Assembly: GCA_004210455.1 (NCBI GenBank) | Contig: SEFA01000034.1 | Coordinates: forward strand, 1-61,424 | DNA from: Rubrivivax sp. | GTDB taxonomy: Bacteria; Pseudomonadota; Gammaproteobacteria; Burkholderiales; Burkholderiaceae_C | Direction: 5' to 3' | Length of the DNA: 61,424 nucleotides | Part shown: one piece after another, positions 11,315-19,487 of the stretch | Position numbering within the stretch: position 1 is the stretch's first letter | Layout of the letters: every line of letters starts with the position of its first letter | Position numbers and translations under genes: made by a program | Notes under the pieces: model-generated | Database searches by the model: none | The model's input: the letters and a program-made list of their open reading frames with translations, nothing else | Told to the model about the DNA's origin: nothing

Positions 11315-11806
11315 TCAGCCCGGCAGCGACGAACTGCGCAGCTCGTCGTGTCGCCTCTGCAGTTCCTGGCGCAACTTCTTGCGCTCCAACGCCGCGTCCC
11401 AGCGGCGTTTCTCGTCCGGCGTCGAGGGCGTGCGCGGCGGCACCGCCACGGGGCGGCCGTCCTCGCCCACCGCCACCATCGTGAAGAAGCAGCTGTTGGC
11501 GTGGCGCACCACCTGCTCGCGGATGTTCTCGGTGATGACCTTGATGCCGATCTCCATCGACGAGGTGCCCGCGTAGTTCACCGACGCCAGGAAGCTGACC
11601 AGCTCGCCGACGTGGATCGGCTGGCGGAACATCACCTGGTCCACCGACAGCGTCACCGTGTAGCGGCCCGCATAGCGGCTGGCGCACGCGTACGCCGCCT
11701 GGTCGAGCAGCTTCAGGATGGTGCCGCCGTGCACGTTGCCGGAGAAGTTGGCCATGTCCGGCGTCATCAGCACCGTCATCGTGAGTTGGTGGGAAGGCAG
11801 GTCCAT
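11315..11806 (-). CDS. Acyl-CoA thioesterase (hotdog fold, YciA/BACH-like)
   Basis: A 163-residue cytosolic enzyme that hydrolyses acyl-CoA to free acid and CoA. The hotdog signature GNVHGGTILKLLDQAAYACA is at residues 23-42, with the catalytic Asp in LLDQAA, and VTLSVDQVMFRQPIHVGELV follows. Length fits the single-domain class. The C-terminus is charged (about 30 residues rich in Arg, Lys and Glu). It converges on gshA with 18 bp between stops. It is divergent from the cNMP-binding oxidoreductase gene. Confidence 0.9.
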   Translation of the reverse strand: MDLPSHQLTMTVLMTPDMANFSGNVHGGTILKLLDQAAYACASRYAGRYTVTLSVDQVMFRQPIHVGELVSFLASVNYAGTSSMEIGIKVITENIREQVVRHANSCFFTMVAVGEDGRPVAVPPRTPSTPDEKRRWDAALERKKLRQELQRRHDELRSSSLPG

Positions 11807-13819: not shown

Positions 13820-13843
13820 AATGCGAATCGTTGTTATTTGCAA
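13820..13843 (+). promoter_or_regulatory. Putative Fur box upstream of the iron operon
   Basis: An AT-rich island in otherwise GC-rich sequence, with GCGAAT and ATTTGC as near-inverted halves (TGCGAATCGTTGTTATTTGC). Betaproteobacterial Fur sites often read ATGCGAAT..ATTTGC. It lies 16 bp before a small membrane protein gene, then a TonB receptor, PepSY protein and fur itself, so Fur repression of the whole operon is likely. Confidence 0.55.
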
Positions 13844-13858
13844 ACTGGGCGCCGTCAG

Positions 13859-14041
13859 ATGCTGTCTCCCGAATCCCGCCGTCTCTGGACCTGGCCGATC
13901 GCGCTGGGTGTGCTGAGCACCTCCGGCCTGCTGACCGCGCTCGTGTCCGACGACTGGGGCGACGCCTGGTCCTGGGTCGGCCTGGGCGTGCCAGTGGCGG
14001 TCATCGCCTGGTACGCCTGGCGTCCCCAGACGCCGCGCTGA
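13859..14041 (+). CDS. Small two-helix membrane protein, first gene of the iron operon
   Basis: A 60-residue protein that I do not recognise. It has two hydrophobic segments, about residues 12-26 (PIALGVLSTSGLLTALV) and 36-54 (WSWVGLGVPVAVIAWYAW), and a basic end, as expected of a small inner-membrane protein. It starts directly after the putative Fur box and precedes the siderophore receptor. Small uncharacterised membrane proteins in this position occur near siderophore receptors, so an accessory role in iron uptake is inferred only from context. Confidence 0.6.
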   Translation: MLSPESRRLWTWPIALGVLSTSGLLTALVSDDWGDAWSWVGLGVPVAVIAWYAWRPQTPR

Positions 14042-14056
14042 AGGCCGCGCCGCTTT

Positions 14057-14111
14057 CATCGCCATCTCGTCACCGTGTCGTCACCGTCTCGTCGCCGTTT
14101 CGTCGCCGTCT
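14057..14111. repeat. 11-bp tandem repeat, 5 copies, upstream of siderophore receptor
   Basis: Five consecutive 11-bp units (pattern CGTCGCCGTCT; the first and others differ at one to three positions) fill the gap between the small membrane protein and the receptor gene. The period equals one helical turn. It is non-coding; a change in copy number would alter leader length but not phase along the helix. Confidence 0.8.
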
Positions 14112-14181
14112 GGCAGGCGCGTCCCATCCGCTCCCCAGCCGGTTTCTCTTTCCAGAAGAAGTCCCGCAAGGTCCCCGCCCC

Positions 14182-16431
14182 ATGAATTCCCCTTCCCTGC
14201 GCCCGTTGGCGCTCGCCATCGCCCTCGGTCTGTCCGGTCTCGCCGCACCTGTCGCCTTCGCGCAGGACGCCGCCCAATCGAAGGACGCGAACAAGGACGA
14301 GGCCAAGGACGGCGGCCCGTCCCAGCTGCCGGCCGTGACCGTCAGCGCCACCGCGGACAAGCAGGGCCTGTCCAAGGCCTACGCCGGCGGCCAGGTCGCG
14401 CGCGGCGGCCGCGCCGGGATCCTGGGCACCAAGGACAACATGGAGACGCCGTTCTCCATCACCGCCTACACCAACGAACTGATCCAGGACCGCCAGGCCA
14501 AGAGCGTCGCCGAGGTGCTGCAGAACGACCCCGGCGTGCGCGCAGCCCGCGGCTTCGGCAACTTCCAGGAGGCCTACTTCATCCGCGGCTTCATCCTGAG
14601 TTCGGACGACGTCGCCTACAACGGCCTCTACAGCCTGCTGCCGCGTCAGTACATCGCCTCGGAGCTGTTCGAGCGGGTCGAGGTGCTGCGCGGCGCCTCC
14701 GCCTTCCTGATGGGCGCCAGTCCCGGCGGCAGCGGCATCGGCGGCAACATCAGCCTGCTGCCCAAGCGGGCGCCGGTCGAGCCGCTGACGCGCCTGACGG
14801 TGAATGCGGGCAGCGGCGGCTCGGGTGGCGCGGCGCTCGACGTGGCGCGACGCTTCGGTCCCGACAACGCGACCGGCGTGCGCTTCAACGCCGCCTACCG
14901 TAACGGCGGCACCGCCGTCGACGACGAGAAGGCCAAGACCAGCGTGGTCGCCGTGGGTCTGGACTGGCGCAGCCGCGACGTGCGCCTGAGCGCCGACCTC
15001 GGCTGGCAGGACAACCGGCTCACCCGCACGCGTCCGAGCGTCACCGTGCAGGGCCTGTCGGCGATGCCGTCGGTCCCGGACAACAAGGCCAACTTCGCGC
15101 AGCCCTGGACCTTCTCCAACGAGCGCGACACCTTCGGCACGTTGCGCGGCGAGTGGGACCTCACCGACACCATCACTGCCTGGGCCGCCTACGGCGCGCG
15201 CCGCAGCAAGGAAGAGAACCGCCTGGCCGGCCTGACCGTCACGGACGCGGCCACGGGCGCGGGCAATTACTACCGCTTCGACAACGGCCGCAAGGACAGC
15301 GTCGACACCGGCGAAGCGGGCGTGCGCGGCAAGTTCCGCACCGGTCCGGTCGGCCACGAGTGGGTGGTTTCGGCCTCGATCTTCTCGCTGGACACCAAGA
15401 ACGGCTACGCGATGGACTTCGGCAACCTGCTGCCGACCAACCTGTACAGCCCGACCTCCGACGCCCAGCCGGTCTTCTCGCCCGGCGTCTACATCGGCAA
15501 CAGCGTGGACGATCCGCGCCTGAACACCCGCGTGCGCAACCGCAGCGTCGCGATCGGCGACACGCTGTCGATGTTCGACGACAGCTTCCTGCTGACGCTG
15601 GGCCTGCGTCACCAGACGCTCAAGCAGGACAGCATCTCGCCGCGCGTGCAGTGGAACTTCAACGGCGCGGACTTCGGCTCGCCGGGCGGCGTGGTCACGA
15701 CCTACGACCAGGACAAGACCAGTCCCGTCGTCGGCGCGGTCTACCGCTTCACGAAGCAGCTGTCGGTCTACGGCAACTACATCGAAGGCCTGAACAAGGG
15801 CGACAGCCTGGCCGCGCAGGACGGCCTGCCGGCGCGCGACCTGGCCCCCTACCAGTCCAAGCAGAAGGAAGTCGGCGTCAAGTACGACGGCGGCCGGCTG
15901 GGATTCGGCGCCGCGTACTTCACGACGGACAAGCCGCGCGCGGTGCTGGCGCAGAACGTGGCGCAGGGCGAGGACCGCCATCGCGGCATCGAGCTGAACG
16001 CCTTCGGCGAAGCCACGCGCGACCTGAAGGTCCTGGGCGGCCTCACCTGGCTGGATGCCAAGCAGCACGGCACCGGCGTCGCCGCGACCGAAGGCAAGCA
16101 CACGCTGGGCATCCCCCGCATCCAGGCCAACCTCGGCACGGAGTGGGAAGTCCGCGCGCTGCAGGGTCTGGCGGTCGACGCGCGCGTGGTGCACACGGGC
16201 AAGTCCTACGCCGACAGCGCCAACACGCTGCGTGTGCCGGCCTGGACGCGCCTGGACGCCGGCGCGCGCTACCTGTTCGAGGTCCAGGGCACGCTGCTGA
16301 CGCTGCGCGCGCGGATCGACAACGTCACCAACCGCAAATACTGGGCCTCGGCCGGCGGCTACCCCGACCAGAGCTACCTGGTGGTCGGCCAGCCGCGCAG
16401 CTTCAACCTGAGCCTGGCGGCGGACTTCTGA
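14182..16431 (+). CDS. TonB-dependent siderophore receptor
   Basis: A 749-residue outer-membrane receptor that imports ferric siderophore with energy from TonB. It has a signal peptide ending AFAQ near residue 29, then a plug domain with LPAVTVSATAD, METPFSITAYTNELIQDRQA, VLQNDPGVRAARGFGNFQEAYF and the VEVLRGASAFLMGASPGG block, followed by a long beta-barrel and a C-terminal Phe. These plug sequences are typical of the siderophore class. The barrel is Gly/Ala-rich. The ATG at 14182 lies after a tandem-repeat leader. PepSY protein and Fur genes follow within 35 bp each, so this is an iron-regulated operon. The siderophore is not known and no biosynthesis genes are present. Confidence 0.93.
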   Translation: MNSPSLRPLALAIALGLSGLAAPVAFAQDAAQSKDANKDEAKDGGPSQLPAVTVSATADKQGLSKAYAGGQVARGGRAGILGTKDNMETPFSITAYTNELIQDRQAKSVAEVLQNDPGVRAARGFGNFQEAYFIRGFILSSDDVAYNGLYSLLPRQYIASELFERVEVLRGASAFLMGASPGGSGIGGNISLLPKRAPVEPLTRLTVNAGSGGSGGAALDVARRFGPDNATGVRFNAAYRNGGTAVDDEKAKTSVVAVGLDWRSRDVRLSADLGWQDNRLTRTRPSVTVQGLSAMPSVPDNKANFAQPWTFSNERDTFGTLRGEWDLTDTITAWAAYGARRSKEENRLAGLTVTDAATGAGNYYRFDNGRKDSVDTGEAGVRGKFRTGPVGHEWVVSASIFSLDTKNGYAMDFGNLLPTNLYSPTSDAQPVFSPGVYIGNSVDDPRLNTRVRNRSVAIGDTLSMFDDSFLLTLGLRHQTLKQDSISPRVQWNFNGADFGSPGGVVTTYDQDKTSPVVGAVYRFTKQLSVYGNYIEGLNKGDSLAAQDGLPARDLAPYQSKQKEVGVKYDGGRLGFGAAYFTTDKPRAVLAQNVAQGEDRHRGIELNAFGEATRDLKVLGGLTWLDAKQHGTGVAATEGKHTLGIPRIQANLGTEWEVRALQGLAVDARVVHTGKSYADSANTLRVPAWTRLDAGARYLFEVQGTLLTLRARIDNVTNRKYWASAGGYPDQSYLVVGQPRSFNLSLAADF

Positions 16432-16441
16432 GGACACGACG

Positions 16442-17611
16442 ATGCTGAGTTCGCGCGCCATCCGGGTCTGGACCTGGCTCCACAAGTGGACCAGCCTGGT
16501 CTGCACGCTGTTCATGCTGCTGCTCTGCCTGACCGGGCTGCCGCTGATCTTCCATCACGAGATCGGTCACCTGCTCGGCGACGAGATCGAGGCGCCCGAG
16601 CTGCCCGCCGCGATGGACAAGCAGCGCGTGTCGCTGGACGTGATGGCCAAGGCGGCCAACGCGGTGCATCCAACGATGGTGATCCAGTTCGCCGGCGAGA
16701 ACGAGGACGACCCGCGCCTGTGGTGGTTCACGCTCGCGCCGACGCCGGAGCCGACCGACCAGTTCAAGTCGGTCGCCGTCGACGCGCGCACCGGCCTGGC
16801 GGTGCGCGAGTACCGCATCGGCGAAGGCTTCATGGACCTGATGTTCCGGCTGCACGTGGACATGTTCGCGGGCCTGCCGGGCAAGCTCTTCCTCGGCCTG
16901 ATGGGCCTGCTGCTGCTGATCGCGCTGGTCAGCGGCGTGGTGCTGTACGCGCCCTTCATGCGCAAGCTCGACTTCGGCGCGGTGCGCAAGGACCGCTCGA
17001 CGCGCGTGAAGTGGCTGGACCTGCACAACCTGATCGGCATCGTCACGCTGGTGTGGTGCTTCGTCGTCGGCGCGACCGGGATGATCAACACCTGGGCGGA
17101 ACTGCTGGTGCAGTACTGGCAGTACGACAAGATCACCGCGCTGCTGGCGCCTTACAAGGACCAGCCGTTGCTGACGGTCGCCGAACGCGCGCCGCTGCAG
17201 GACTCGATGGACACGGCGATGCAGGTCGGCGCGCAGCGCAAGGTCTCGTTCATCGCGTTCCCGGGGACCTCGTTCTCCAGCCCCCACCACAACACCTTCT
17301 TCCTGAAGGGCACGACGCCGCTGACCTCCAAGCTGCTGCAGCCGCTGCTGATCGACGCGAAGACCTCGCGGCTGACGGCCGCGCCGGAACTGCCGTGGTA
17401 CCTGACGGCGCTGCTGGTGTCGCAACCGCTGCACTTCGGCGACTACGGCGGCATGCCGATGAAGATCCTGTGGGCGCTGCTGGACGTGGCGACCATCGTG
17501 GTCCTCGGCAGCGGCCTCTACCTGTGGCTGCGCAAGCCGCAGGGCGCCAGGAAGGCCAGCAAGGGCGCCGAGCTCGACGACGCCAAGCATCCCGAAACCG
17601 CGGCCGCCTGA
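16442..17611 (+). CDS. PepSY-associated membrane protein, siderophore operon
   Basis: A 389-residue inner-membrane protein of the PepSY transmembrane group, whose siderophore-linked members such as PiuB and FoxB are thought to act as reductases or in periplasmic iron release. Four transmembrane segments are visible, near residues 15-37, 140-165, 194-216 and 345-365. Conserved His residues (LHKWTSL, FHHEIGH, RLHVDMFAGL, DLHNLIGI) could ligate haem. Two PepSY-like domains lie in the loops. It starts 10 bp after the receptor stop and is surely co-transcribed. A reductase role is inferred from family and context. Confidence 0.87.
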   Translation: MLSSRAIRVWTWLHKWTSLVCTLFMLLLCLTGLPLIFHHEIGHLLGDEIEAPELPAAMDKQRVSLDVMAKAANAVHPTMVIQFAGENEDDPRLWWFTLAPTPEPTDQFKSVAVDARTGLAVREYRIGEGFMDLMFRLHVDMFAGLPGKLFLGLMGLLLLIALVSGVVLYAPFMRKLDFGAVRKDRSTRVKWLDLHNLIGIVTLVWCFVVGATGMINTWAELLVQYWQYDKITALLAPYKDQPLLTVAERAPLQDSMDTAMQVGAQRKVSFIAFPGTSFSSPHHNTFFLKGTTPLTSKLLQPLLIDAKTSRLTAAPELPWYLTALLVSQPLHFGDYGGMPMKILWALLDVATIVVLGSGLYLWLRKPQGARKASKGAELDDAKHPETAAA

Positions 17612-17642
17612 TCGCCAGTCCGCACGATCACACTCACCGCAC

Positions 17643-18104
17643 ATGCCTGATTCGAACAAGCCCGACTCCCCCAAGCACCAGATCGAGAGCCTGCAGTCCA
17701 GCGGCCTGAAGGCCACGCTGCCCCGCATCAAGGTGCTGCAGATCTTCGAGCAGTCGGACCAGCGCCACCTCAGCGCCGAGGACGTCTACCGCCAGTTGCT
17801 GCTGGACGGCGCGGACATCGGCCTGGCGACGGTGTACCGGGTGCTGATGCAGTTCGTCGAGGCGGGCCTGCTGGCGCGCCAGCACTTCGAATCCGGCAAG
17901 GCCGTGTTCGAGCTCAACTCCGCGCAGCACCATGACCACATGGTGTGCCTGGCCTGCGGCCGGGTGGAGGAGTTCTACGACGCCGGCATCGAGCAGCGCC
18001 AGCGCGAGATCGCCGAGGAGCGGGGCTACGAACTGGTCGAGCACGCGCTCGCGCTGTACGGGCTGTGTTCGAACCCGGAATGCCGGGCCAAACGCAACCG
18101 TTGA
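17643..18104 (+). CDS. fur: Ferric uptake regulator Fur
   Basis: A 153-residue iron-dependent repressor. The N-terminal winged helix contains SGLKATLPRIKVLQIFEQS and GLATVYRVLMQFVEAGLL (recognition helix), and the C-terminal metal/dimer domain has HHDHMVCLACGRVEEFYD plus a second Cys pair, CSNPEC. It closely follows the PepSY gene (31 bp) and shares the Fur-box promoter, giving negative feedback. In many relatives the main fur lies elsewhere, so this may be a second copy, but the sequence is a normal Fur rather than Zur or PerR. The stop codon lies in a 12-bp tandem repeat. Confidence 0.92.
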   Translation: MPDSNKPDSPKHQIESLQSSGLKATLPRIKVLQIFEQSDQRHLSAEDVYRQLLLDGADIGLATVYRVLMQFVEAGLLARQHFESGKAVFELNSAQHHDHMVCLACGRVEEFYDAGIEQRQREIAEERGYELVEHALALYGLCSNPECRAKRNR

Positions 18105-18130
18105 AGCAACCGTTGAAGCAATCGCTGAAT
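18095..18130. repeat. 12-bp tandem repeat spanning the fur stop codon, 3 copies
   Basis: CAACCGTTGAAG occurs twice exactly and once with two changes. The first copy contains the last fur codons and TGA; the others repeat TGA in the same frame at 18114 and 18126, giving three stops in a row. Confidence 0.85.
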
Positions 18131-18187
18131 CCGACGGGGGTGGGCCGGAAGACCGTGGCGGGACGCGCACAATCCGGCGCTTCCCTG

Positions 18188-18216
18188 TTGATCACTGTAT
18201 GTGCATACAGTATATT
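18188..18216 (+). promoter_or_regulatory. Sigma70-like promoter with a LexA-type SOS operator in its spacer
   Basis: TTGATC (18188-18193, -35) and TATATT (18211-18216, -10) are separated by 17 bp. The spacer contains CTGTATGTGCATACAG (18195-18210), matching the CTGT-N8-ACAG LexA box of gamma- and betaproteobacteria with perfect 7-bp arms. A repressor bound here would block RNA polymerase directly. It faces the 36-codon ORF at 18258. Confidence 0.75.
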
Positions 18217-18257
18217 TCCCTCCATCGCAGCCAACCCGGCTGCAGCAGGAGATGGTC

Positions 18258-18368
18258 ATGCAGATGCTCAAGCAAACGGTCTGGTCTTCGTTGAACAACG
18301 CGGATGCCTGGGTGGTCTGCATCGGCGTCATGTCCTGCCTCGGACTGGCGACGGGCTTGCTGGGTTGA
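18258..18368 (+). CDS. SOS-promoter-driven small membrane peptide, 36 residues
   Basis: I do not recognise this peptide. It starts MQMLKQTVWSSLNNAD, a polar, slightly amphipathic segment, followed by a hydrophobic stretch of 20 residues (AWVVCIGVMSCLGLATGLLG) that could span the membrane and contains two Cys. AGGAG at 18247-18251 is 6 bp before the ATG, and a LexA-box promoter lies 42 bp upstream, with a strong terminator 57 bp downstream, so a dedicated transcription unit is well supported. By analogy only, SOS-induced one-helix peptides such as TisB in Escherichia coli and SidA in Caulobacter act as membrane-depolarising toxin or division inhibitor. There is no sequence similarity that I can claim to either. 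An upstream ATG at 18252 would add two residues. Confidence 0.6.
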   Translation: MQMLKQTVWSSLNNADAWVVCIGVMSCLGLATGLLG

Positions 18369-18424
18369 GAGCTTAGCTCAGCCTGGCGAACCCTTCGCCT
18401 CCAGTGTTCCGTTCGCGGAGCCAG

Positions 18425-18452
18425 GGTCCCCTCCCGAGGGGACCTTTGTTTT
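18425..18452 (+). terminator. Strong rho-independent terminator of the SOS micro-ORF unit
   Basis: The arms GGTCCCCTC (18425-18433) and GAGGGGACC (18436-18444) pair perfectly and are followed by TTTGTTTTC. It closes the unit begun by the LexA-type promoter. Confidence 0.8.
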
Positions 18453-18489
18453 CAGTGCCTTTCAGTTCTCAAAGCTTTTGTCCGCTCGA

Positions 18490-18544
18490 CTTGAGCAACG
18501 CCTGACCCCGGTCCTGGACGTTGCTCAAGCGGCGGACTTTTTTT
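18490..18544. terminator. Inverted repeat at the LysR 3' end, possible second terminator
   Basis: CTTGAGCAACG (18490-18500) and CGTTGCTCAAG (18519-18529) are perfect 11-bp inverted arms; the second overlaps the LysR stop codon. A run of seven T (18538-18544) follows on the plus strand, itself flanked by GCGGAC/GTCCGC. It may stop transcription between the converging units. Confidence 0.4.
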
Positions 18545-19487
18545 GTCCGCGCTTTTTGGCCTTTGGCGCATCTGCCGGCTGCCTGGCGAGCGCGGCCTGC
18601 CCGTCCTTCACGAAGTCGACGAAGGCGCGCAGCGGCGCCGGCAGGTAACGCCGGCCCGGGTAGTAGAGGAAGGGGCCGCTGAAGGACACCCACCACTCGG
18701 GGAGCACCGGCACGAGCGCGCCGCTGTCGAGATGTGGCCTCAGCCAGTCCTCGAAGGTCTGGATCACGCCGCAACCCTGCACCGCCGCGTCGATCGCCAG
18801 GTCCAGGCCGCCGCCGAGGCGGACGGTCAGCGGACCGTCGGGATCGACGGTGACGGCTTCGCCGTCGCGCTGGAACTCGTAGGCCGGCATCGTGCCGCTG
18901 GGAAAGCGGCCTCGCAGGCAGTGGTGGGCGAGCAGATCCCGCGGATGGGCCGGCTGGCCGTGCTGGGCGAGGTAGGCCGGCGACGCCGCCGTCGCCATGC
19001 GCTGCGTCCGCGGACCGATGGGCACGGCGATCATGTCCTGCTCCAGGCGCTCCTCGTAGCGGATGCCGGCGTCGCAGCCGGCGGCGAGCACGTCGACGAA
19101 GCTCTCATCGACGGTGACGTCGAGCTTGATGTCCGGATACGCCTTCAGGAAGTCCGGGACGATCTGCGGCAGCACGAGCCGTGCCGCGCTCGCCGGCACG
19201 TTGAGCCGCAGCGTGCCGGCCGGCCGCTCGCGAAAGCCGTTGACGACGTCGAGCGCGGCTTCGACCTCGCCCAGCGCCGGTCCGAGCCGGTCCAGCAGCC
19301 GGGCGCCGGCTTCGGTGGGCGCGACGCTGCGGGTGCTCCGGTGCAGCAACCGGACACCGAGCTTCGCCTCCAGTCGCCGGACCGCTTCGCTCAGCCCGGA
19401 AGCGCTCAATCCCGACTGCCGCGAAGCTTCCCGGAAACCACCGGACCGCGCCACGGCGAGGAAGGCCGAGAGATCGCCAAGTTCCAT
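18525..19487 (-). CDS. LysR-family transcriptional regulator beside aldo/keto reductase
   Basis: A 320-residue LysR-type regulator. The N-terminal winged helix-turn-helix is clear (LSAFLAVARSGGFREASRQS, then SGLSEAVRRLEAKLGVRLLHR), followed by a periplasmic-binding-like effector domain with FVDVLAAGCDAGIRYEERLE. The tail is basic (KAKKRGQKKSAA). It is divergent from the aldo/keto reductase gene with 122 bp between starts, the usual arrangement when the LysR protein controls its neighbour. Members of this subgroup, including those next to oxidoreductases, often respond to reactive or aromatic compounds, but the effector here is unknown. Confidence 0.9.
   Translation of the reverse strand: MELGDLSAFLAVARSGGFREASRQSGLSASGLSEAVRRLEAKLGVRLLHRSTRSVAPTEAGARLLDRLGPALGEVEAALDVVNGFRERPAGTLRLNVPASAARLVLPQIVPDFLKAYPDIKLDVTVDESFVDVLAAGCDAGIRYEERLEQDMIAVPIGPRTQRMATAASPAYLAQHGQPAHPRDLLAHHCLRGRFPSGTMPAYEFQRDGEAVTVDPDGPLTVRLGGGLDLAIDAAVQGCGVIQTFEDWLRPHLDSGALVPVLPEWWVSFSGPFLYYPGRRYLPAPLRAFVDFVKDGQAALARQPADAPKAKKRGQKKSAA

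What the first reader, a model, noticed from the sequence alone, without database searches (positions are those of the whole stretch)
18188..18452. Stand-alone SOS-type unit encoding a 36-residue membrane peptide
A LexA-type box (CTGT-N8-ACAG, perfect 7-bp arms) exactly fills the 17-bp spacer of a sigma70-like promoter. It is followed by an AGGAG site, a 36-codon ORF with one hydrophobic helix and a strong intrinsic terminator. All parts were seen directly. SOS-induced single-helix peptides known elsewhere (TisB, SidA) control dormancy or division, so this could be an undescribed member in Burkholderiales.
Basis: partly seen in the sequence, partly recalled or inferred. Interest (0 to 1): 0.82.

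Follow-up and report, generated by a model that had tools for sequence, protein, structure and literature searches.

The report
SOS-controlled one-helix membrane protein family
A tiny gene that looks switched on by DNA damage makes a 36-residue protein that should sit in the cell membrane; relatives with the same kind of switch occur in several other genera, so it may be an unrecognised way for these bacteria to pause when their DNA is broken.

Summary
The unit is real and every described part is where stated. The 36-codon frame is a protein gene: 15 of 16 genus genomes have it and synonymous change far exceeds non-synonymous (mean pS 0.42, pN 0.075, 14 sequences). Named relatives are mostly Roseateles and Mitsuaria. 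The -35/LexA-box/-10 block stays about 90% identical while the box-to-start distance varies from 63 to 211 nt. Iterated profiles found relatives in 14 of 299 family genomes, 8 of 141 genera. Of 25 genomes known to carry the gene, 19 have a perfect CTGT-N8-ACAG upstream and 6 a one-mismatch box. Neighbouring genes differ between genera. No credible Pfam, NCBIfam, PHROGs or Rfam match. W18 and G29-xxx-G33 are invariant; some members carry a C-terminal tail. So this is an undescribed family of LexA-type-controlled one-helix proteins. Function is inferred, not shown: my best guess is a SidA/SosA-like division inhibitor (about 0.4). A TisB-like toxin is less likely: no antisense promoter was seen and the helix core is uncharged. 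A SulA search of this genome found nothing.

The parts
18188..18193 (+). -35 hexamer TTGATC
   Evidence: TTGA kept at this place in all 14 aligned genus members, own included
18195..18210 (+). LexA-type operator CTGTATGTGCATACAG, filling the promoter spacer
   Evidence: perfect box in 19 and one-mismatch box in 6 of 25 carrier genomes, own included
18211..18216 (+). -10 hexamer TATATT
18217..18246 (+). 5' leader, not conserved in length between species
   Evidence: box start to ATG varies from 63 to 211 nt in 14 genus members
18247..18251 (+). Shine-Dalgarno AGGAG, 6 nt before the ATG
   Evidence: a GGAG before the start in the listed members
18258..18368 (+). 36-codon gene MQMLKQTVWSSLNNADAWVVCIGVMSCLGLATGLLG with stop; one hydrophobic helix, residues 18-36
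   Evidence: purifying selection; predicted helix 2-35, mean pLDDT 83.8; Kyte-Doolittle mean 1.95 over 19 residues
18423..18446 (+). intrinsic-terminator-like hairpin
   Evidence: 10 pairs, loop of 4, TGTTTT after it; fold of 18188-18452, z -4.7
16442..17611 (+). upstream neighbour: membrane protein of PepSY look (context, not part of the unit)
   Evidence: ORF; a like ORF upstream in 14 of 15 genus loci, not in G008; name from recall, not scanned
17643..18104 (+). upstream neighbour: Fur-like regulator (context)
   Evidence: ORF; seen in some genus loci only; name from recall, not scanned

Best explanation
A stand-alone LexA-repressed gene. LexA binding between -35 and -10 blocks transcription; when RecA triggers LexA cleavage after DNA damage, a short terminated mRNA is made and a small protein with a single helix enters the inner membrane, probably N-terminus inside, with an outside tail in the long members. 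There it most likely acts as an SOS checkpoint peptide that docks, through its Trp-18 and G29-xxx-G33 helix face, onto a membrane protein of the division machinery (FtsW/FtsI/FtsN as for SidA) and delays division until repair is done. Shown by comparison: a conserved protein gene with a conserved LexA-type operator, in one gene family across 8 genera. Inferred: induction, membrane insertion, topology. Guessed by analogy: division as the target. My confidence is about 0.93 for a LexA-controlled protein gene, 0.9 for membrane location, 0.4 for division inhibition.
For: 15 of 16 genus genomes carry the frame; mean pS 0.42 vs pN 0.075, variable codon positions 15/3/25; pS 0.32-0.62 and pN 0-0.074 over the last 25 codons in the three g29 genomes. 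Promoter-operator block 0.90 identical in 14 genus members; in the 7-sequence short-leader set 0.91 for the block, 0.67 for the leader, 0.34 for the 60 bases after the stop. Perfect box in 19 of 25 carriers, one mismatch in 6. Five relatives picked by protein profile: 4 of 5 have a perfect box, against 0 of 14 and 0 of 28 weaker profile hits. Operator-first search: 14 sites in 13 of 299 genomes, 0 in the reversed control; 7 of the 14 precede a family member, one of them (G049) until then only a chance-level profile hit (E 0.167). Helix core without charge in 7 of 13 members and only an acidic last residue in 6; N-part net charge 0 to +5, tails -3 to 0. No SulA hit in G000 or G007. SidA is a 29-residue SOS-induced inner-membrane protein that interacts with FtsW, and SosA a 77-residue one with an outside C-terminus (passages of PMC4211646 and PMC6851548).
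Against: No expression, binding or phenotype data. No division gene recognised beside it in the contexts seen (by eye). GxxxG helices are common in membrane proteins (recall). In the own sequence the N-part has net charge 0, so its orientation is weakly supported. The 30 bases upstream of -35 are also fairly conserved (0.79) in the short-leader set, so the contrast for the operator is clear against the leader and 3' flank, less so upstream. One-mismatch boxes also turn up near weak non-members (3 of 14; 2 of 28; 4 of 29), so the case of G220, which has only two one-mismatch boxes, is weak support. SulA is expected to be narrow anyway: only 1 of 14 control genomes passed its cut-off. The gene is patchy, 8 of 141 genera, so it is not a general checkpoint of the family. 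Five genus members share a one-mismatch operator, and G007 has no match.
Confidence: 0.45

Rival explanations
1. A TisB-like membrane toxin: after LexA is cleaved the peptide depolarises the inner membrane and makes part of the population dormant.
For: Small, one predicted helix, LexA-type operator; TisB is a 29-residue membrane peptide acting on DNA damage (abstract of PMC11449926). The region folds better than shuffles as RNA.
Against: No promoter on the opposite strand in 17600-18700 and no Rfam match in 17600-18900, so no sign of a type I antitoxin; leader length is not conserved. TisB needs Lys-12, Gln-19 and a C-terminal Lys; the 19-residue core here has no Lys or Gln and the helix end is uncharged or acidic, though some long tails hold Lys or Arg near their end.
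Confidence: 0.15
2. A small regulator of another inner-membrane protein (transporter, protease, envelope-stress or lipid enzyme), tuned to DNA damage but not tied to division.
For: Invariant W18, G29 and G33 would fit helix packing against a partner; neighbours in different genera give no hint of division.
Against: No partner gene was seen beside it across genera; nothing points to a particular target.
Confidence: 0.3
3. A prophage or mobile-element remnant (lysis, exclusion or SOS-triggered excision).
For: LexA-type operators occur in phages (recall); patchy spread over genera.
Against: No credible PHROGs family (5 members scanned, best E 0.036), no confirmed IMG/VR relative (25 pattern matches, none confirmed), no hit in phages for one long member or in plasmids for the own peptide and one long member; same upstream gene in 14 of 15 genus loci.
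Confidence: 0.05
4. The conserved thing is the operator or RNA alone and the frame is incidental.
For: Terminator-like hairpin and folded transcript.
Against: Codon-position pattern and low pN; protein similarity across genera.
Confidence: 0.02

Closest known systems
SidA of Caulobacter crescentus
   Same: SOS-induced, very small (29 aa) inner-membrane protein; primary SOS division inhibitor there (passages of PMC4211646).
   Different: No sequence relation tested (no SidA sequence at hand); another class of bacteria; division role untested here.
SosA of Staphylococcus aureus (and YneA of Bacillus subtilis)
   Same: SosA: SOS-induced, one N-terminal helix and an outside C-terminal part, 77 aa (passages of PMC6851548); the long members here (64-83 aa) look alike in layout.
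   Different: Gram-positive proteins; no homology shown; the Roseateles form lacks a tail, whereas the C-terminal part is essential in SosA.
TisB/IstR-1 of Escherichia coli
   Same: DNA-damage-linked membrane peptide of 29 aa (abstract of PMC11449926).
   Different: No antitoxin RNA or antisense promoter found; needed positive charges absent from the core.
DinQ of Escherichia coli
   Same: SOS-regulated single-transmembrane peptide (abstract start in the listing of PMC3567139).
   Different: DinQ has two small RNAs complementary to it (same listing); none found here.
SulA of Escherichia coli
   Same: SOS-induced division inhibitor (recall, and the PMC6851548 introduction passage).
   Different: Cytosolic and larger; no SulA hit in G000 or G007.

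Membership tests
LexA (SOS) regulon of this genome | LexA-type operator overlapping the promoter | tested here: met
   same extended motif as the imuA operators
LexA (SOS) regulon of this genome | operator conserved in front of orthologues | tested here: met
   perfect in 10 of 15 genus members, one mismatch in 5; 19 and 6 of all 25 carriers
LexA (SOS) regulon of this genome | LexA binding and induction by DNA damage | not testable with these tools
   needs bench work
SidA/DidA/SosA-type SOS division inhibitor (functional class) | SOS control | tested here: inconclusive
   operator present by sequence; induction not tested
SidA/DidA/SosA-type SOS division inhibitor (functional class) | small protein with a single transmembrane helix | tested here: met
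   by prediction only:
SidA/DidA/SosA-type SOS division inhibitor (functional class) | blocks division through FtsW/FtsI/FtsN or other divisome proteins | not testable with these tools
   needs overproduction, two-hybrid and suppressors
SidA, SosA or YneA protein family (homology) | sequence homology | not tested
   no reference sequences at hand; 10 members scanned gave no credible Pfam or NCBIfam match
TisB/IstR type I toxin-antitoxin | antisense antitoxin RNA gene nearby | tested here: not met
   no promoter on the opposite strand in 17600-18700, no Rfam match; a consensus scan can miss weak promoters
[quoted passage not shown]
   no K, R, D or E in the 19-residue core of 7 of 13 members, only an acidic last residue in the other 6; the own peptide ends in LLG; requirement
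phage or plasmid accessory gene | relatives on phages or plasmids | tested here: not met
   Searches (plasmids; IMG/VR; phages, one long member only; PHROGs, 5 members) found none credible

The most novel reading that the evidence does not exclude
This is the SOS division checkpoint of a branch of Burkholderiales (no SulA was found in the two genomes searched): an undescribed one-helix family, arisen independently of SidA and SosA, that stalls the divisome through a Trp plus GxxxG helix face, with a tail-less form in Roseateles/Mitsuaria and an outside-tailed form (a possible handle for proteolytic switch-off) in other genera.
Probability: 0.33. Interest if true: 0.8.

Novelty: new member of a known kind. 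Interest (0 to 1): 0.64.

Why it matters
SulA is poorly conserved outside Enterobacteriaceae (PMC6851548 passage), and how many other bacteria link DNA damage to division is open. A conserved one-helix protein with a LexA-type operator, of a size that annotation tends to miss, gives a concrete candidate in this branch of Burkholderiales, testable with a deletion and an overproduction strain in soil bacteria. It also shows a method: operator plus weak protein profile together recovered a tiny gene (G049) that the first profile left at chance level.

Tried and rejected
Bare-box statistics: CTGT-N8-ACAG alone is not above chance in the window or genome, so it was not used as proof. Start at ATG 18252 or at the upstream GTG 18201: not preferred, because L008 puts the first ATG out of frame and the SD spacing fits 18258. 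RNA-only reading: rejected by the substitution pattern. Phage or plasmid origin: no support. Occurrence outside the family: two order-wide profile searches (399 genomes with A3; 182 genomes with A6) gave only weak hits; no perfect box lay near the 29 of 34 weak places that had a locus nor near the 12. A repeat with the final profile over 200 family genomes gave 9 genomes at E 3.1e-12 or better, all already known, and the next hit at 2.6e-4 has no box. Solved structures: only chance matches, best E 0.57. The predicted model is a lone helix, so no fold search was run. Family scans: nothing credible in Pfam or NCBIfam (10 members) or PHROGs (5 members). PADLOC was not searched.

Papers: seven searches of the open-licence PMC library showed no title or abstract start describing this family; listings are capped and subscription papers are mostly missing. 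One search (mitomycin + Roseateles + SOS response) returned 0 papers. I saw passages of PMC4211646, PMC6851548 and PMC9380542, the abstract and outline of PMC11449926, and only listings of the rest.

Caveats on counts: L032/L033 and L042 were accepted partly because of the box, and L130 was found by the box; these are not independent proof that box and gene go together, and they are rows of the profile used. The members not chosen by box are the 15 of the genus and the five. In one search, weak hits without a locus were not checked for boxes. The Fisher test used 42 weak hits, three of them repeats (G028, G211, G033 occur in both lists), so its p of 3e-5 is slightly too good. The 1.8% background includes loci fetched because of boxes. 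The 0.03 expectation assumes 69% G+C; the 3-kb locus measured 67%. The radical-SAM match was made with a protein cut to 206 residues and scored just under its cut-off.

Full report
What is there. The window holds, at 18188-18452, a compact unit read directly from the sequence: TTGATC, a 16-base LexA-type palindrome CTGTATGTGCATACAG at 18195-18210 that fills the 17-bp spacer, TATATT, an AGGAG site, a 36-codon frame from 18258 to the stop at 18366-18368, and a terminator-like hairpin at 18423-18446. A consensus scan of 17600-18700 on both strands found this promoter and no other.

Is it more than chance? The short form of the box, CTGT-N8-ACAG, is not enriched, so the box alone would prove little. 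The long form CTGTAT-N4-ATACAG is rare: seven copies in the genome by my count of the list, about 0.03 expected under a simple composition model with an assumed G+C. The other six stand before two imuA genes, a putative DNA-repair radical-SAM gene and three unnamed genes. So by sequence the site belongs to the SOS operator set of this genome.

The frame is a gene. It is present in 15 of 16 genomes of the genus, own included (G007 has no match, G008 is divergent at 48% over residues 12-36). Over 14 sequences mean pS is 0.42 and pN 0.075, and variable sites at codon positions 1, 2 and 3 number 15, 3 and 25. In L008 the first ATG is out of frame, which supports the start at 18258. Named relatives are Mitsuaria sp. 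PDC51, Mitsuaria chitosanitabida, Roseateles terrae, R. aquatilis, Roseateles sp. YR242 and two MAGs labelled Burkholderiaceae and Rubrivivax, which places the window in the Roseateles/Mitsuaria group.

The operator travels with the gene. Within the genus the 29-base block from -35 to -10 is about 90% identical over 14 members, although the distance from box to start codon ranges from 63 to 211 nt. In the seven short-leader members, identity is 0.79 for the 30 bases before -35, 0.91 for the block, 0.67 for the leader, 0.88 for the frame and 0.34 for the 60 bases after the stop. The box is perfect in 10 of 15 genus members and is CTGTATGCCCATCCAG, one mismatch, in the other five.

A wider family. 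Searches of 299 family genomes with the peptide and a first profile brought up three g29 genomes and one g85 genome, each with a perfect box upstream. An operator-first search gave 14 sites in 13 of 299 genomes and none for the reversed control; 7 of 14 precede a family member, including one in g35 that the first profile had left at E 0.167. A profile with these added found 14 of 299 genomes, 8 of 141 genera, at E of 1.6e-4 or better; the next hits are 1.5e-3 or weaker. Five of the 14 were new and chosen by protein: four have a perfect box 47-86 bases before the start and the fifth, G220, has only two overlapping one-mismatch boxes. Weaker hits that were checked had no perfect box: 0 of 14, 0 of 28, 0 of 29, with three repeats between the first two lists; one-mismatch boxes occurred near 3, 2 and 4 of them, so such a box is weak evidence. 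In all, 25 genomes are known to carry the gene, 19 with a perfect and 6 with a one-mismatch box. Two order-wide searches found no convincing member outside the family (399 genomes; 182 genomes).

Anatomy of the protein. Members run from 36 to 83 residues. The shared core is [DEQN]-x-W-[VI] followed by a hydrophobic stretch with G29-xxx-G33; W18, G29 and G33 are invariant in the 14-sequence alignment. Of 13 members examined, seven have no charged residue in the 19-residue core (six of these end there; G099 has a tail) and six have an acidic residue at the core's end followed by a tail. The N-part has net charge 0 to +5 and the tails -3 to 0, which suggests N-in, tail-out, though for the window's own peptide the N-part is neutral. 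AlphaFold2 gives one helix, residues 2-35, mean pLDDT 83.8. No family library matched credibly, and there is no Rfam match.

Context. In 14 of 15 genus loci a PepSY-type membrane gene stands upstream, with a Fur-like gene between in some; G008 differs. In other genera the neighbours differ; a mutS-like gene stands beside it in two of the three g29 loci (names by eye and recall). Only the operator was seen in common, which argues for a self-contained unit.

How it works. Shown: conserved gene, conserved LexA-type operator, common family. Inferred: LexA repression, induction by DNA damage, membrane insertion. Guessed: the target. The closest functional models are SidA, a 29-residue SOS-induced membrane protein that interacts with FtsW, and SosA, a 77-residue one with an outside C-terminal part. 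The invariant GxxxG and Trp would fit a helix-helix contact with a partner. TisB needs Lys-12, Gln-19 and a C-terminal Lys; the core here has no Lys or Gln, and no antitoxin signal was seen. A Pfam SulA search of G000 and G007 found nothing; only 1 of 14 control genomes passed that cut-off, so absence is common. I put a division checkpoint at about 0.4, another membrane partner at 0.3, a depolarising toxin at 0.15.

Novelty. The kind (SOS-controlled one-helix peptide) is known; this protein family, its operator-linked spread over eight genera and its two layouts were not found in the libraries searched or in the listings of seven paper searches.

Noticed in passing
L075 (G000:C77, box at 71162) and L076 (G000:C99, box at 11694): Two similar unnamed small genes (about 90-96 aa, MLLDLNxAxxIVEWW...) each close behind a perfect extended LexA box; no NCBIfam match. 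Possibly a second undescribed SOS-boxed family.
   Followed up: partly
L074/L125 (G000:C67, box at 100406): A 169-aa unnamed gene (MRRYEVILERV...) behind a promoter whose spacer is filled by a perfect LexA box, the same layout as the finding; no NCBIfam match.
   Followed up: partly
L067 (G000:C134) and L068 (G000:C30): Two imuA genes, each with its own perfect LexA box: possibly two copies of the SOS mutagenesis module in one genome.
   Followed up: no
L133/L042 (G099) and L136 (G126): Two adjacent or overlapping perfect LexA boxes before the small gene, which could mean tighter repression.
   Followed up: no
L009-L012 and L014: A sub-group of the genus shares a one-mismatch operator CTGTATGCCCATCCAG and longer leaders (98-211 nt from box to start), possibly weaker repression.
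   Followed up: partly
window 13831-18104: A TonB-receptor-like gene, a PepSY-type membrane gene and a Fur-like gene in a row just upstream, looking like an iron-uptake cluster (by eye).
   Followed up: no
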